From IMG/VR virus record IMGVR_UViG_3300043425_000477, positions 1 through 30,981 of that record: DNA of 30,981 bases; one strand, given 5' to 3'. Source of the DNA: a virus. Below, in pieces: positions 1 through 30,981 of this stretch. Under the pieces are notes generated by a model. That model was not told where the DNA came from. It worked only from the letters and a program-made list of their open reading frames with translations, and searched no databases. Positions within the stretch are counted from its first letter, which is position 1. Every line of letters starts with the position of its first letter. Position numbers and translations under genes: made by a program.

Positions 1-254
1 TGGCGAACCTAACACAGGCAGGGATAGCTAACCCTACAGCATGGGTATTAGAGGGTAGCTTCGGTACCATCACATGGGTAAGGATAGCACAGGGGCAGTA
101 TTGGGGATACCTTGAGCAGTATGACCCATTGGTTCCACTGACTGAGCTATCGGTTATGATTAGCAGTAACATCTTTGACGGGTTGATTACTGCACAATAC
201 CTACCTGCTAACCAGGTGATAGAGGTATTCACCACACAGATAGGGGTAGGCTTA
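1..254. repeat. Terminal overlap, left copy (circular join)
   Basis: Bases 1-254 match 30728-30981 at 252 of 254 positions. The differences are at 116 (G here, C at 30843) and 127 (C here, A at 30854). The repeat lies wholly inside one coding sequence and reading frame. This fits an assembly overlap of a circular or circularly permuted genome better than a true terminal repeat. Confidence 0.9.
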
Positions 255-14300: not shown

Positions 14301-14535
14301 TCTAAGAGACCACCTCTTTGCAGCACTCGAAAGATTAAATGATGATGAATTAACACCTGAGCAATTGTCTACTGAGGTAGAAAAGGCACAGGCAATATCT
14401 AACCTGTCAAACTCTATAATTAACAGCGCTAAGGCTGAGGTTGATTTCATGAAAGCTACCGGAATGATAGCTACCACATCGAACCTATTCAAAGGAGTTA
14501 ATGACCCTAAAAGACTTGGAGATGCTACTAATTGA
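14278..14535 (+). CDS. Small helical phage protein (85 aa)
   Basis: 85 residues overlapping the HNH gene by 23 nt. It reads as three helices with the pattern RNGMNDLRDHLFAALERL, then TPEQLSTEVEKAQAISNLS, then INSAKAEVDFMKATG. Proteins of this make-up are common beside HNH and replication genes in phages of many hosts, but no function is known to me. It overlaps the DnaA-like gene by 35 nt. Confidence 0.55.
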   Translation: MARNGMNDLRDHLFAALERLNDDELTPEQLSTEVEKAQAISNLSNSIINSAKAEVDFMKATGMIATTSNLFKGVNDPKRLGDATN

Positions 14536-14986
14536 TGAAATATACCACCTTTCAAAGGTGCAGAATGATGACATTGTTAACATCATTGAATTATTCAACC
14601 TTCGCAAGAGGTGCCGCAAACAGGAGTATGTATACAAGCGTTATTTCTTAGCTCAGTACCTGGTCCGCAGAAGGCACATGACAGTGCAGATGGCAGGGTA
14701 TTACCTCAACATTGACCACAGCACGGTAAGCTATGGCATTAAGATGCATGACTTGTGGTGGAAATGGAATGATCACAAGTACCTTGCAGCCATTAACCCC
14801 ATCCCAAAGATGCTGAGCGTGACAACCTATGACAACCCCGTGACAACTTACACGGTAAAATACAACGAGGTTGACACGGAGAATGTGGAGGTAACCATCA
14901 ATGGAAATTTTCCGCCAAAGTTATTAACCAGTTTCGAGAAACCCTTGACAGGTAAGCAATTAAGCGAGATATTTGCACTGTCATAG
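14501..14986 (+). CDS. DnaA domain IV-like DNA-binding protein, candidate replication initiator
   Basis: 161 residues. Residues about 45-90 resemble DnaA domain IV: a helix (KRYFLAQYLVRRRHMT), a second helix (VQMAGYYLNI) and the signature-like DHSTVSYGIKMHDL, close to the D-H-[ST]-T-V motif that reads DnaA boxes. No ATPase domain is present. The tail (about 105-161) is not recognised and includes a repeated VTTY that is encoded by two iterons lying inside the gene. Next to it are the iteron cluster and the primase-helicase, so it probably binds the iterons and opens the origin or recruits helicase. ATG 14522 is an alternative start. Confidence 0.65.
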   Translation: MTLKDLEMLLIDEIYHLSKVQNDDIVNIIELFNLRKRCRKQEYVYKRYFLAQYLVRRRHMTVQMAGYYLNIDHSTVSYGIKMHDLWWKWNDHKYLAAINPIPKMLSVTTYDNPVTTYTVKYNEVDTENVEVTINGNFPPKLLTSFEKPLTGKQLSEIFALS

Positions 14987-15232
14987 GATAAGGGTTAATA
15001 CGTTAGGGGGCTTCGGCTCCCTTTCTTTTTGCCCATCCGTGACGACGTGACAACCCAAATGCATATGAGCCATATATTTAATACAGTGATATTCACCCCC
15101 CAAAAAGTTGACTTTGAGTTGTCACGTTGTCACGGAAACACAAGAAAGCCAATACAGACGTGGTTTATAGGCGTGACAACTACCCCCTTTGAGTTGTCAC
15201 GGAGTTGTCACGGTTGTCACGGAGTTGTCACG
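14818..15232. repeat. Iteron cluster, candidate replication origin
   Basis: Ten perfect copies of GTTGTCACG occur in 415 bp. Six are direct (starts 15118, 15126, 15193, 15204, 15213, 15224) and four inverted as CGTGACAAC (starts 14818, 14839, 15046, 15172). Near copies lie at 14828, 14870 and 15038. Spacing in the last four is 11, 9 and 11 nt, about one helical turn. AT-rich DNA follows at 15232-15260 and could be the unwinding region. The cluster lies between a DnaA-IV-like gene and the primase-helicase. Confidence 0.8.
15006..15030 (+). terminator. Intrinsic terminator of the early operon
   Basis: GGGGGC (15006-15011), loop TTCG, GCTCCC (15016-15021), then TTTCTTTTT. The 6-bp stem has one G-T pair and a stable UUCG tetraloop with a U tract. 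It lies 20 nt after the DnaA-like gene and separates the early operon from the origin and primase unit. Confidence 0.85.
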
Positions 15233-15256
15233 AATTAGAATTATTTAATATATTTG
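15225..15256 (+). promoter_or_regulatory. Host-type promoter of primase-helicase, overlapped by last iteron
   Basis: TATATTTG at 15249-15256 matches the -7 consensus; TTG at 15225-15227 lies 21 nt upstream, slightly far. That TTG is part of the last iteron (15224-15232). An initiator bound to the iterons should therefore cover the promoter and repress it. Confidence 0.6.
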
Positions 15257-15261
15257 TAACC

Positions 15262-17586
15262 ATGTATAACCCTTATATATCAATTTTCAAATCTCTCTAC
15301 AATAGTAAAGAGACACCATTCTCTATCAAGGCAATAGAGGTGCATAACAGGATACAGGTAGGCACACCTGATTTGATTGCCAAGATAAATGCCATCCGAA
15401 AGGGCAATAATGAGCTCAAGAATACCCTCATGGCTATCATGTTCAATGGGACCTTCAGTGAACGGAAGGATGATGGCCTTGTTGAGCACTCAGGGCTGTG
15501 CATCCTGGACTTCGACAAGTACCCCGATGCTGATACTATGGCAGCAGAACGCAAAAGGCTTATTGACGATAAGTACACATATATGCTTTTTACGTCACCA
15601 AGTGGTAAGGGCCTCAAGGTAGTAATTAGGATACCTCAGTGCGATAAGGTAGAGCACCGGAGGAGGTTCAGCCATTATGAGCAGTACATAAAGAGTGAGT
15701 ACTTTGATACATCCAATAAGAATATCAGCAGGGTATGCTTTGAGTCCTATGACCCTGATGCCTATCTCAATGAATTTGCAGCCATCTACACTGGCATTGT
15801 GGAGGATACAGGCTACCACCGCAGTGAATACACCCCCAAGGTGATTGTAACCAATGAGAACCGCATCATTGAGAAGGTACTCAAGTTTAACCATGGTGAA
15901 TTTAAGGAAGGTAACCGAGCCAATTACATCTACAAGGTAGCCTGTTGCCTATGTGAGTATTCTATACCCCTTACTACTGCGGAGAATACACTACTACAAT
16001 TCACGCAGGATGGATTCGGAGCTACGGAAATAACCAACACGGTCCGAAATGCATACAAGCAGGCTCAGTTCGGTCTTAAAGTATTCGAGGATGTGGAGGC
16101 TATTCAAGGTATTAAGAATAAACTGAAGCAAGGAATACCCCCCGAGGACATTAGCAAGCAACTGAGTGTATCTAAGGAGGATATTAAGGCCATCCAAAAG
16201 GAGGAGGATATCTTTTGGGAGGTAAAAAAAAACACCGTTAACATCATACCGAACAAATATGCTCAGTGGTTGCACAAGCAGGGCTTTGCTAAGTACTACC
16301 CTGAGAGGTCAAATAACCCTATTTTCGTATACATAACCGAGAATAAGGTCCAAGAGAGCTCTGTGGAGAAGATTAAAGACCACGTGCTAACCTATCTTAT
16401 GGACAGGGAGCTGATGGATGTGTACAACCATTGTGCTAAGAGCTCACAGTTATTCACACCAGGGCACCTTAATATGCTTGACTCCATTGATATGCGTATC
16501 CTGCAGGACTCAAAGACCGAATGTTACCTACCATTTACCAATGGTGTGGCAGTGATCACCAAAAACAAGGTAAAGCTACTGAGCTACATTGATATTGATG
16601 GGTACATATGGAGGGACCAAATAATCCCGAGGGAGTTTAAGGTGGAGGATACCTATGAGAACAACTTCCAAGACTTCGTTAACAAGATTGCAGCACAGGA
16701 CCCCAACCGAATCAAGTCCATGAGGACCACCATAGGGTACCTGTTGCACACCTACAAGGATAAGGCAGACCAAAAGGCTGTTATCTTCAATGATGAGGAG
16801 ATAGATGATAACCCCAACGGAGGGAGTGGTAAATCACTCATGCTCACTGCCCTTGGTCACATCCGGAAGATAGTCAAGATTGATGGTAAGCTCTTCAACC
16901 CAGGTAAGAATGATTTTGCCTATTCACGGGTCAACCCTGATACTCAAGTCTTGGCCTTTGATGATGTCAAAAAGCACTTTAATTTTGAGCAGTTGTTCTC
17001 ACTGATCACTGAGGGTATCCCTGTCAACCGCAAAAACAAGGATGAGTACTATATTCCATATGAGCGAAGCCCTAAAATAGTGATAACGACCAACTATGTG
17101 ATAGCAGGAGCAGGGGGGAGTCATGACCGCAGAAGACATGAGGTTGAGTTTAACCAATACTTCAATGCTAACCATAGCCCCATTGATGAGTATGGGTGCA
17201 AGCTATTCGACCAATGGACACAGGAGGAGTGGAGCTACTTCGATAACTACATGATTGATAATATCAAGTACTACCTTGAGCATGGGCTGTACCAAACCAC
17301 AGGAATCAACAGCGACATCAAGAAATTTATTCAAAACACCTGCAAGGAGTTCTATGACTTCGTGGAGGATACACCCCTCACTGCGGATGGTTCCCACTTG
17401 CACCGGTACAAAGGACTCATGCAACAATTCCAGGAAGAGACTAATGGCTTCAAGGACCTCAAGCCTCAAGTCTTTGCTCGATGGATTGATTGCTATGCAA
17501 CTCACATGAAATATAAACTCACTAAACACCGAAACCATGAAGGCCGCCACTTTTACCTTACTCCTACTCAGCCTGCTAAGCTGTAA
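15262..17586 (+). CDS. Primase-helicase: BT4734/VirE-N-type primase plus SF3 helicase
   Basis: 774 residues from ATG 15262, 6 nt after the -7 box; an ATG at 15205 inside the iterons is rejected because it precedes the promoter. The N-terminal third resembles BT4734-like/VirE-N primase domains common in Bacteroidota elements: LCILDFDKYPD, then FTSPSGKGLKVVIRIP. The C-terminal third is a superfamily 3 helicase: Walker A PNGGSGKS (about 518-525, Lys524), Walker B VLAFDDV (563-569) and sensor KIVITTNY with Asn611. It would unwind and prime DNA at the adjacent origin. No DNA polymerase is seen in the window, so the host enzyme is probably recruited. Confidence 0.9.
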   Translation: MYNPYISIFKSLYNSKETPFSIKAIEVHNRIQVGTPDLIAKINAIRKGNNELKNTLMAIMFNGTFSERKDDGLVEHSGLCILDFDKYPDADTMAAERKRLIDDKYTYMLFTSPSGKGLKVVIRIPQCDKVEHRRRFSHYEQYIKSEYFDTSNKNISRVCFESYDPDAYLNEFAAIYTGIVEDTGYHRSEYTPKVIVTNENRIIEKVLKFNHGEFKEGNRANYIYKVACCLCEYSIPLTTAENTLLQFTQDGFGATEITNTVRNAYKQAQFGLKVFEDVEAIQGIKNKLKQGIPPEDISKQLSVSKEDIKAIQKEEDIFWEVKKNTVNIIPNKYAQWLHKQGFAKYYPERSNNPIFVYITENKVQESSVEKIKDHVLTYLMDRELMDVYNHCAKSSQLFTPGHLNMLDSIDMRILQDSKTECYLPFTNGVAVITKNKVKLLSYIDIDGYIWRDQIIPREFKVEDTYENNFQDFVNKIAAQDPNRIKSMRTTIGYLLHTYKDKADQKAVIFNDEEIDDNPNGGSGKSLMLTALGHIRKIVKIDGKLFNPGKNDFAYSRVNPDTQVLAFDDVKKHFNFEQLFSLITEGIPVNRKNKDEYYIPYERSPKIVITTNYVIAGAGGSHDRRRHEVEFNQYFNANHSPIDEYGCKLFDQWTQEEWSYFDNYMIDNIKYYLEHGLYQTTGINSDIKKFIQNTCKEFYDFVEDTPLTADGSHLHRYKGLMQQFQEETNGFKDLKPQVFARWIDCYATHMKYKLTKHRNHEGRHFYLTPTQPAKL

Positions 17587-28184: not shown

Positions 28185-30981
28185 GATACAACTACCTACA
28201 GGCTACCTTGACGTGAAGGAGGGCACTGCCTTCCCTTTGAACTTCCAGGTAGGGGACATCAGAGATATATCACAGCGGAAGGGTAACTTCTCCAAGACCA
28301 TCAAGCTCATTGGTAGCAAGAATAACAACAAGCTACTCAATCAGTACTATGATGTGAACATCCAAGCGGGGACCTTCAACATCAACACATTGACTACATG
28401 CTCGGTCATTCAGGATGGTATCCCCATCATGGAGAACGTATCCATGCAGTTGACTAGCGTGGTCAAGGTACAGGATACCTCAGGCTATGAGGAGAGCGTT
28501 GAGTATGAGGTCCTAGTCAAGGAGAGTAAGGGTGACTTCTTTACAGCCATCAATAACCTTGAGCTGACTGACATAGACTTCAGTGACCTCAACCATACGT
28601 ATGATGCATTCAATGTGGTGAACAGATTCACCAACACTGTAGTGGATGGCTTCAAGTATTTCCTACCTGCTAGTGGTGATGCCTTCTACATTACCAATGA
28701 ATTCAAGCCTGCCATCTTTGCCAAGACTTACCTTGACCGTATCTTCGCTAATGCAGGCTTTCAGTACAATTGGGCAGGGCTAACTGCTGCAAGGTTTGAC
28801 AAGCTCATCATTCCATACAACGGTGATGTAGATAACTTTGACTACAATGACTACATGGTCAAGGCTGAAAAGACTACACCCTTCACAATAACGGGTAACA
28901 CATCGGTGCCTGGTTATACTAACATCCCCTTTGTACCTGGTACCCCCATTACAGGATGGACTGAGACCGAGGACCCTCAGAACATATACAACCCTGTGAC
29001 GGGTGTGTATAGTACTCCCTTCAACATAAGCAGTAACAACGCACAAGAGTACACCTACACGGTACAGATTAGATACAGGCTTGACCTCATCAATCCAACC
29101 GGTGCAACCATCTTCAGTGCCAAGCCTAATAACGCAGGTATCCAAAATCCTAACCCTGTTTTCTACAGACCTGGTGTTATTGTTCAAGGTCTAGGTGGAG
29201 GTAGCTCTGCATTCGTAGGTCAAAATCTATACACTAACCCAAGCCCTCCAAGTGCTGCTGTAAATACTGCCGTTCAATGTCCTAACAGTGTGGCACCAGG
29301 TACTACTACCTTACTGAGTCAAACGGTTGTAGTAACATTACCCGTGACATCGGTAAACTTCCAACAGCTAAGTAGCTGCAGGCTTTATGCTATAGTTAAC
29401 CAACCCTTCTATATTCCACCTGGGCAGTCAGCATCAGGTACAGCTTGGAGGGTAGGAAGTATCACAGGAGCAGTAGCTAATGGTGTGAGGGTTGACATGG
29501 TTATTGACTCTATCTACTTGACCATTGTGCCTAACAATAACATCGTAGCCATTGGTGGTATCTTGGAGGTCAATGACTATGTGCCTAAGAAGATAAAGCA
29601 GAGTGACTTCGTGAAGGGTATCTTCAACATGTTCAACCTATACGCAGATGTCGATAAGGTACAGCCTAACACCATCAACCTCATCCATCGTGATGACTAC
29701 TATGATTCAGGTGCCGAGGTAGACTGGACCTACAAGCTAGCCAAGGACCAAGAGCAGGAGCTGTCATTCCTGCCTGAGCTAACAAGCAAGAAGCTCATCC
29801 TCACGTATGCACCGGATAAGGATAACCCTAACGAGACCTACACCAATGCTACGAACCAAATCTATGGACAGGCTGAGGTAGTCTTTGATAATGAGTATGT
29901 GAAGGAGGTGACCACTAAGACCGTACTCTTCAGCCCTACCCCTGTGATACGTACACCATTCAACGCATACGTTCCAATGATTGCAGGGCAAACACCTAAG
30001 AATAACATCCGCATCCTGTATGACAGTGGTGTTATGAAGTCATGCAATGCGTACAACATCTATGACTATGGTTTGGTTGGTCAGAGCAACGTTATTACCT
30101 ATCCATATGTAGGTCACTTCGATGACCCATTGCTCCCTACCTTTGACATTAACTTTGCGACCTGTTCATTCTACTACTACAACCCTACAAGTCTAACGGA
30201 GAACAACCTCTACAACAGATATTGGAGGCGGACCATGGGGCAGATTAACAACGGTAAGATGTTGACTGCTATGTTCAACCTCACTGAGAGTGACATCCAA
30301 AAGATGAAGCTCAATGATAAGATTAGGATTGATAACTCATGGTGGAACATCAACAAGGTCATTGACTATGATGCCAATGCTACCAAGCTCACGAAGGTAG
30401 AGCTCATCAGCATAGATACAGAGATTGACTTCATGCCATTCAGTGCAGGATTCAATGAGCCCGGTATTGGATTACCTAACGTTGGACCTATCCAACAGGT
30501 AGCCAATGATACTATCATCAAGCAGAAGAGTGCCTATGCCAATGTAACAGGTGAGGGAGGCATGGAAGGTAGCATCATAGGTAAGGGTAACATAGTGCCT
30601 CCAGGATTCAAGACATTGATAGTAGGTGATGGGTACGATGTTACAGACAATGGTATAGTGGTGGACAACCTAGTTGTGCGTAACAGCTACAACGGTGTAC
30701 CGATTGACAATACACCCAAGAGATACATGGCGAACCTAACACAGGCAGGGATAGCTAACCCTACAGCATGGGTATTAGAGGGTAGCTTCGGTACCATCAC
30801 ATGGGTAAGGATAGCACAGGGGCAGTATTGGGGATACCTTGACCAGTATGACCAATTGGTTCCACTGACTGAGCTATCGGTTATGATTAGCAGTAACATC
30901 TTTGACGGGTTGATTACTGCACAATACCTACCTGCTAACCAGGTGATAGAGGTATTCACCACACAGATAGGGGTAGGCTTA
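28177..30981 (+). CDS. Large tail protein (about 952 aa when joined to 1-308), tail hub/fibre-base candidate
   Basis: ATG 28177 overlaps the previous stop by 8 nt and the frame stays open to the window edge. It continues at base 1 to TAA 306-308, for about 952 residues. The start VRIQLPTGYLDVKEGTAFPL and QRKGNFSKTIKLIGSKNNN resemble the N-termini of Bacteroidota phage tail proteins. The middle is beta-rich with Thr/Asn/Pro-rich segments; about 470-760 has alpha/beta character (KKIKQSDFVKGIFNMFNLYADV); the end is strand-rich. Size and place before the tape measure suit a tail-tip hub or fibre-bearing protein. No catalytic motif was recognised. Confidence 0.65.
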   Translation, partial: MVRIQLPTGYLDVKEGTAFPLNFQVGDIRDISQRKGNFSKTIKLIGSKNNNKLLNQYYDVNIQAGTFNINTLTTCSVIQDGIPIMENVSMQLTSVVKVQDTSGYEESVEYEVLVKESKGDFFTAINNLELTDIDFSDLNHTYDAFNVVNRFTNTVVDGFKYFLPASGDAFYITNEFKPAIFAKTYLDRIFANAGFQYNWAGLTAARFDKLIIPYNGDVDNFDYNDYMVKAEKTTPFTITGNTSVPGYTNIPFVPGTPITGWTETEDPQNIYNPVTGVYSTPFNISSNNAQEYTYTVQIRYRLDLINPTGATIFSAKPNNAGIQNPNPVFYRPGVIVQGLGGGSSAFVGQNLYTNPSPPSAAVNTAVQCPNSVAPGTTTLLSQTVVVTLPVTSVNFQQLSSCRLYAIVNQPFYIPPGQSASGTAWRVGSITGAVANGVRVDMVIDSIYLTIVPNNNIVAIGGILEVNDYVPKKIKQSDFVKGIFNMFNLYADVDKVQPNTINLIHRDDYYDSGAEVDWTYKLAKDQEQELSFLPELTSKKLILTYAPDKDNPNETYTNATNQIYGQAEVVFDNEYVKEVTTKTVLFSPTPVIRTPFNAYVPMIAGQTPKNNIRILYDSGVMKSCNAYNIYDYGLVGQSNVITYPYVGHFDDPLLPTFDINFATCSFYYYNPTSLTENNLYNRYWRRTMGQINNGKMLTAMFNLTESDIQKMKLNDKIRIDNSWWNINKVIDYDANATKLTKVELISIDTEIDFMPFSAGFNEPGIGLPNVGPIQQVANDTIIKQKSAYANVTGEGGMEGSIIGKGNIVPPGFKTLIVGDGYDVTDNGIVVDNLVVRNSYNGVPIDNTPKRYMANLTQAGIANPTAWVLEGSFGTITWVRIAQGQYWGYLDQYDQLVPLTELSVMISSNIFDGLITAQYLPANQVIEVFTTQIGVGL
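30728..30981. repeat. Terminal overlap, right copy (circular join)
   Basis: Copy of bases 1-254 with C at 30843 and A at 30854 instead of G and C. Both changes alter the protein (Glu to Asp and Pro to Gln, reading left copy to right copy), so they may be real strain variation rather than random error. Confidence 0.9.

What the first reader, a model, noticed from the sequence alone, without database searches (positions are those of the whole stretch)
14818..15256. Iteron origin next to a stand-alone DnaA domain IV-like protein
Ten perfect GTTGTCACG copies, six direct and four inverted, with several near copies, lie between a DnaA-IV-like protein and the primase-helicase. The densest four are spaced about one helical turn apart and are followed by AT-rich DNA. 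A DNA-binding DnaA domain without its ATPase module, with its own box sequence, may be a simplified initiator. The box differs from the usual TTATCCACA DnaA box.
Basis: partly seen in the sequence, partly recalled or inferred. Interest (0 to 1): 0.78.

Follow-up and report, generated by a model that had tools for sequence, protein, structure and literature searches.

The report
Phage origin with DnaA-like iteron binder
A Bacteroidota-type phage carries a conserved array of short DNA repeats between a gene for a small protein that looks like the DNA-reading end of the bacterial starter protein DnaA and the gene for a primase-helicase, most likely a replication origin whose initiator has kept only DnaA's DNA-binding part.

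Summary
In detail: exactly ten perfect GTTGTCACG copies (6+/4-), all at 14818-15232 and none elsewhere in the window. Two lie inside the 3' end of the small gene; eight lie between it and the primase-helicase. The small protein (154 aa, probable start 14522) has a DnaA domain IV fold over residues ~10-100: profile search of the PDB returns DnaA chains first, and a predicted model matches 3pvp and 1j1v at Z 9.2 and 9.1. It has no AAA+ part. The gene is directly upstream of this primase in 72 of 73 relatives. The region between them keeps the same site layout while the site sequence changes at all sites together, from GTTGTCAC here to (TT)ATCGTCA in a sister group; the sister site matches the DnaA box at 7 of 9 positions. 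In two cultured phages with a related primase the same slot holds a lambda O-like/DnaD-like initiator. Best reading: a phage theta origin with a DnaA-domain-IV-derived iteron binder that recruits the phage primase-helicase, which supplies the ATPase. Who binds the iterons is not settled: site changes track the primase as well as the DnaA-like protein, and GC skew does not turn at the array. New variant of a known kind.

The parts
14522..14986 (+). Gene for the 154-aa DnaA-domain-IV-like protein (first-stage ORF 14501-14986); N-terminal ~100 residues DnaA-IV fold, C-terminal ~50 residues conserved but unassigned
   Evidence: start chosen from relatives
14818..14826 (-). iteron GTTGTCACG, inside the DnaA-IV-like gene
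14829..14837 (-). near iteron GTTGTCATA, inside the gene
14839..14847 (-). iteron GTTGTCACG, inside the gene
14870..14878 (+). near iteron GTTGACACG; a perfect GTTGTCACG in several relatives
15005..15030 (+). intrinsic terminator closing the DnaA-IV-like gene (stem GGGGGC/GCTCCC, loop TTCG, T-rich tail)
   Evidence: conserved in relatives
15038..15054 (-). iteron pair: GTCGTCACG (15038, 1 mismatch) and GTTGTCACG (15046)
15055..15117 (.). A+T-rich stretch (65% A+T) between inverted iteron pairs; candidate melting region
15118..15134 (+). two iterons 8 bp apart (15118, 15126)
   Evidence: same position in the sister group
15135..15171 (.). conserved ~37-bp spacer (GCCAATAC...TTTATAGGC) between site pair and single inverted site
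15172..15180 (-). iteron GTTGTCACG
15193..15232 (+). four iterons at 15193, 15204, 15213, 15224 (spacing 11, 9, 11)
15224..15256 (+). Bacteroidota-type promoter-like pair: GTTG (15224, within the last iteron), 21-nt spacer, TATATTTG (15249-15256); A+T-rich
   Evidence: sequence; consensus from general knowledge
15262..17586 (+). Primase (BT4734-like N-terminal domain) fused to an SF3-like helicase (GGSGKS, FDDV, TTN motifs), 774 aa

Best explanation
The region 14818-15261 is most likely the phage's replication origin. Several copies of the 154-aa DnaA-domain-IV-like protein bind the iterons, which lie on both flanks of an A+T-rich, conserved segment and next to a second A+T-rich stretch. This bends and loads the region, and the bound protein recruits the primase-SF3 helicase encoded next door, which opens the DNA and lays the first primers. 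The initiator therefore supplies only the address, and the ATP-driven work that DnaA's own AAA+ part does at oriC is done by the separate primase-helicase. Because the last iteron covers the upstream element of the primase's own promoter, binding should also repress or pace primase expression. Shown here: iterons, conservation and layout, the DnaA-IV fold, absence of an ATPase domain, synteny. Inferred: that this protein binds the iterons, that the region is an origin, recruitment of the primase-helicase, and promoter control.
For: DnaA-IV fold: A4 profile against the PDB returns five DnaA chains first (best E 8.8e-4); 18 of 19 family members match Pfam Bac_DnaA_C at E<0.1 (best 1e-10; L123, L139 and L151 exceed the curated cut-off; the window's protein itself scores only 20 bits). 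The AF2 model with 19 sequences (pLDDT >90 over much of residues 20-90) matches 3pvp Z 9.2 (89 residues, 3.3 A) and 1j1v Z 9.1 (86 residues, 2.9 A); the six best rows are all DnaA and the next unrelated row is Z 6.4. Synteny: 72 of 73 primase loci have the gene directly upstream on the same strand. Site layout kept while the motif changes in concert at all sites (GTGACAAC to GTGACGAT/ATGACGAT), as expected for a trans-acting binder. Array is the single dense cluster in the window and six whole relative contigs (>=2 in 300 bp nowhere else; in one of them, G010, the cluster is only 2). Sister-group site consensus TTATCGTCA matches DnaA box TTATCCACA at 7/9 (0.5% of random 10-mers do). The sister group keeps DnaA's R-D/N-H-x-x-V-x-H recognition-helix pattern, while the window group has I/L and Y at the R and outer H positions and has lost the TTA half. 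Related primases of Flavobacterium phage elemoF and Maribacter phage Panino have a lambda O-like/DnaD-like initiator gene in the same slot.
Against: Distance comparison of 77 loci does not favour the DnaA-IV-like protein over the primase as the binder (partial correlations 0.14 against 0.51 overall, 0.18 against 0.18 within the sister group). Within the window clade the primase is 96-99% identical and the DnaA-like protein 79-100%, yet the iteron does not change. GC skew has no turn at the array. E. coli Arg399's exact position is Tyr/Ser/Phe here, though the neighbouring R40 is nearly invariant. The DnaA-box likeness was noticed after the fact and holds for the sister group only.
Confidence: 0.6

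Rival explanations
1. The region is the origin, but the primase-helicase itself binds the iterons, as the alpha protein of satellite phage P4 does (origin recognition, helicase and primase in one chain). The DnaA-IV-like protein is an accessory or copy-number regulator, as Orf56 is beside the primase-helicase Orf904 of plasmid pRN1.
For: Site changes track primase divergence at least as well as that of the DnaA-like protein. In the window clade both iteron and primase are nearly invariant while the DnaA-like protein drifts. pRN1's small DNA-binding protein is a repressor/copy-number protein beside a primase-helicase (PMC4234260); P4 alpha as a single-chain precedent (cited in PMC8965321). The primase C-terminus looks by eye like a winged-helix tail.
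Against: No Pfam or PDB domain that reads DNA was found in the primase's C-terminal part.
Confidence: 0.22
2. The array is only a regulatory operator: the DnaA-IV-like protein binds it to repress or activate the primase promoter (and, through the sites in its own gene, itself), and replication starts elsewhere.
For: The last iteron covers the -33-like element of the primase promoter, and in the sister group a site sits between the two promoter elements. DnaA itself is also a transcription regulator (general knowledge). GC skew gives no support for an origin here.
Against: About 13 sites over 420 bp in both orientations, a conserved non-promoter spacer and a site-flanked A+T-rich segment are more than an operator needs. 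The position between initiator and primase genes is typical of phage origins (general knowledge).
Confidence: 0.13
3. The sites are bound by a host factor, such as host DnaA or a nucleoid protein, and the phage protein is unrelated to them.
For: None specific.
Against: No DnaA box within 1 mismatch lies in 14400-15400. The motif changes between phage lineages that keep the same gene order, which a fixed host factor would not drive.
Confidence: 0.05

Closest known systems
Lambda O / SPP1 G38P / TP901-1 ORF13 type phage initiators (iteron binders without ATPase)
   Same: A phage-encoded, ATPase-free DNA-binding protein encoded beside its iteron origin and next to the helicase/primase module; iterons partly inside a coding gene (lambda O, lactococcal Rep2009/ORF13; see PMC8965321).
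   Different: The DNA-binding fold here is DnaA domain IV, not the O/DnaD-type winged helix; the partner is a BT4734-type primase fused to an SF3-like helicase instead of a loader for host DnaB.
Bacterial DnaA (domain IV) and oriC
   Same: Domain IV fold with the H-S/T-S/T recognition helix; clustered 9-mer sites beside A+T-rich DNA; sister-group site TTATCGTCA like TTATCCACA.
   Different: No AAA+ domain III and no domain I; window site GTTGTCACG; no true DnaA boxes in the array.
Phage P4 alpha / plasmid pRN1 Orf904 primase-helicases
   Same: Primase fused to an SF3-type helicase next to its origin.
   Different: There, origin recognition is in the same chain (P4), or the neighbouring small protein is a repressor (pRN1, PMC4234260); here a separate DnaA-IV-like protein is always linked.
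Stand-alone 'dnaA'/'chromosomal replication initiation protein' of Caudoviricetes sp. ctfjg026 (MW202828)
   Same: A phage with a 39%-identical primase and two short Bac_DnaA_C proteins without ATPase.
   Different: Genes are not directly upstream of the primase and there is no iteron array; instead dispersed GTGTCGTTAACGACAC palindromes.

Membership tests
Bacterial DnaA protein | DNA-binding domain IV (Bac_DnaA_C helix-turn-helix) | tested here: met
   Fold Z 9.2/9.1 to 3pvp/1j1v, six best rows all DnaA; profile hits to DnaA chains. By Pfam the window's own protein is below the curated cut-off (20.1 against 31.5 bits), but L123, L139 and L151 exceed it.
Bacterial DnaA protein | AAA+ ATPase domain III | tested here: not met
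   154-aa protein with no P-loop; Pfam and NCBIfam match domain IV only.
Bacterial DnaA protein | Binding sites matching TTATnCACA | tested here: not met
   None within 1 mismatch in 14400-15400; only at 16450 and 23264. The sister-group site TTATCGTCA matches TTATCCACA at 7/9.
Iteron origin with phage-encoded, ATPase-free initiator (lambda O kind) | Cluster of direct repeats, about one turn apart, beside A+T-rich DNA, unique in the genome | tested here: met
Iteron origin with phage-encoded, ATPase-free initiator (lambda O kind) | Initiator gene adjacent to the array and to helicase/primase genes | tested here: met
   72 of 73 relatives.
Iteron origin with phage-encoded, ATPase-free initiator (lambda O kind) | Homology of the protein to O-type/DnaD-type initiators | tested here: inconclusive
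   No initiator family hit in PHROGs for the window protein or for L123, L139, L135; its fold is DnaA-IV. O-like proteins occupy the same slot in two other phages.
Iteron origin with phage-encoded, ATPase-free initiator (lambda O kind) | Protein binds the iterons and the fragment replicates autonomously | not testable with these tools
   Needs gel shift/footprint and a replicon assay.
P4 alpha-type single-chain initiator | Primase fused to SF3 helicase | tested here: met
   BT4734-like_N E 1.1e-22; GGSGKS, FDDV, TTN motifs; DUF5906 in the relative MW202828.
P4 alpha-type single-chain initiator | Origin-binding domain in the same chain | tested here: inconclusive
   No recognised DNA-binding domain in the C-terminal third; no PDB relative found.

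The most novel reading that the evidence does not exclude
A phage lineage uses DnaA domain IV, cut loose from its ATPase and re-tuned to new boxes, as its sole origin-recognition protein, handing melting and helicase loading to a primase-SF3 helicase. The family's boxes range from near-DnaA boxes (TTATCGTCA) to GTTGTCACG, giving a natural series of how DnaA-box specificity changes.
Probability: 0.5. Interest if true: 0.65.

Novelty: new variant of a known kind. Interest (0 to 1): 0.52.

Why it matters
Phage initiators without ATPase are known, but those known to me use other DNA-binding folds. A domain-IV-only initiator would show that the DnaA address reader can work apart from its AAA+ motor, and would tell where some of the many unannotated or mis-annotated short 'dnaA' proteins in phage genomes act. 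The >70 aligned origins with differing boxes and recognition helices make DnaA-box specificity directly testable.

Tried and rejected
GC skew as an origin marker: no turn at the array in the window or in six relative contigs; the genomes are almost wholly coded on one strand, so I treat this as uninformative to mildly negative. Site/protein co-variation to decide which protein binds: not decisive. First AF2 model from 11 close relatives: too weak (pLDDT 49.9), replaced by the 19-sequence model; Foldseek alone gave no match at E<=0.001 for either model. Search of annotated phages with the 161-aa protein: no match. Search of bacterial/archaeal genomes: one MAG contig only. Literature: no paper found that reports this 9-mer or a domain-IV-only phage initiator; the library covers open-licence papers only. 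Packaging (pac/cos) site considered and set aside: the terminase lies ~10 kb away at 25.5 kb. The C-terminal ~50 residues of the small protein remain unassigned.

Full report
Observation. The ten perfect GTTGTCACG copies exist as described, six on + and four on -, all within 14818-15232. No other 9-mer in the window is as frequent, and shuffles never exceed four copies in such a region. Two copies, plus near copies at 14829 and 14870, are inside the 3' end of the small gene; the others are between it and the primase-helicase. The last four are 11, 9 and 11 bp apart and are followed by 30 bp of 87% A+T. The window's ends repeat 254 bases (252 identical), so the record is terminally redundant.

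The small protein. Relatives diverge upstream of Met 14522, so the protein is probably 154 aa. Single-sequence Pfam gives Bac_DnaA_C below the curated cut-off (20 bits). The family is clearer: 18 of 19 members match at E<0.1, and of those scored singly L123, L139 and L151 exceed the cut-off. A profile of the family against all PDB sequences returns five DnaA chains first. A model built from 19 sequences has pLDDT above 90 over much of residues 20-90. It matches M. tuberculosis DnaA-DBD with DNA (3pvp, Z 9.2, 3.3 A, 89 residues) and E. coli domain IV with a DnaA box (1j1v, Z 9.1, 2.9 A, 86 residues); the six best rows are all DnaA and the best other row is 6.4. There is no ATPase domain. A C-terminal ~50-residue part is conserved in most members and unassigned.

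The neighbour. The 774-aa protein at 15262-17586 has a BT4734-like primase N-terminus (related to a CRISPR primase-polymerase model) and SF3-like helicase motifs. An intrinsic terminator (15005-15030) separates the two genes, so the primase needs its own promoter. The Bacteroidota-type TATATTTG at 15249-15256, with GTTG of the last iteron 21 nt upstream, fits (general knowledge of that promoter type).

Relatives. 23 IMG/VR contigs carry close relatives and keep the array. The site at 14870, imperfect here, is perfect in several relatives. A wider search found many phages of about 29 kb with a primase ~62% identical, and others at 46-60%. Of 73 primase loci with at least 700 bp upstream, 72 have the DnaA-IV-like gene directly upstream. 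The intergenic region keeps its plan: terminator; one or two sites; ~75 bp; two sites 8 bp apart; a 46-bp spacer with a conserved block; one inverted site; ~20 bp; further site(s); promoter; ATG. The site sequence differs between lineages but all sites in one genome change together: GTGACAAC (window group), GTGACGAT or ATGACGAT (sister group), GTTACAAA (L139). In whole contigs the array is the only cluster; in one contig (G010) it holds just two copies of the exact motif counted.

Link to the DnaA box. The sister consensus TTATCGTCA matches TTATCCACA at 7 of 9 positions; 0.5% of random 10-mers do so. In E. coli DnaA the recognition helix reads the 3' part of the box and Arg399 the TTA (PMC5742627). 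The sister proteins keep R-D/N-H-x-x-V-x-H as in DnaA, whereas the window group has I/L and Y at the R and outer H positions and its sites have lost TTA. This is suggestive, with few independent events.

Function by position. In Flavobacterium phage elemoF and Maribacter phage Panino, whose primases are distant relatives, the gene directly upstream of the primase is a lambda O-like/DnaD-like initiator by PHROGs. The DnaA-IV-like gene thus fills the initiator slot.

What is not settled. A distance comparison over 77 loci does not show that sites follow the DnaA-like protein rather than the primase. In the window clade the primase and the iteron are nearly constant while the DnaA-like protein varies up to 20%. 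A P4 alpha-like arrangement, with origin recognition in the primase-helicase, therefore remains open, and so does a repressor role as for Orf56 of pRN1 (PMC4234260). GC skew gives no support for an origin here.

Verdict. Most likely a phage replication origin with a DnaA-domain-IV-derived, ATPase-free iteron binder that works with a primase-SF3 helicase (0.6). It works like lambda O; it is not a DnaA protein (no AAA+, other boxes), and not shown to be an O homologue. New variant of a known kind.

Noticed in passing
window 1-254 and 30728-30981: Terminal repeat of 254 bases (252 identical): the record is circular or terminally redundant, genome ~30,727 bp.
   Followed up: yes
window 15135-15171 (and equivalent in relatives): Conserved non-site block between iterons, consensus about tgaAAcc.aatAC.GcatTg.TTTATAGcc; possible contact site of another replication protein.
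   Followed up: partly
window 15249-15264: Promoter element TATATTTG ends 5 bases before the primase ATG, and similarly close in most relatives: the primase message may be leaderless.
   Followed up: no
L032, L049, L053, L060, L064, L066, L068, L072: GTGACAAC/TTGTCACG-type clusters also occur in unrelated phage contigs; in L032, L049 and L068 beside genes that look by eye like prim-pol/primase (no family search was run on them).
   Followed up: partly
L075 (MW202828.1) 186, 1131, 1997, 2528, 3025, 6411, 9330: Dispersed palindrome GTGTCGTTAACGACAC, seven copies (some imperfect), in a phage with two stand-alone DnaA-IV-like proteins; half-site TTAACGACAC resembles a DnaA-type box.
   Followed up: partly
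L023: Primase and DnaA-IV-like genes broken into several frames: a decayed or poorly sequenced copy.
   Followed up: no
L093/L098 against L095: Near-identical origin DNA next to different DnaA-IV-like protein types: origin modules appear to have recombined between lineages.
   Followed up: partly
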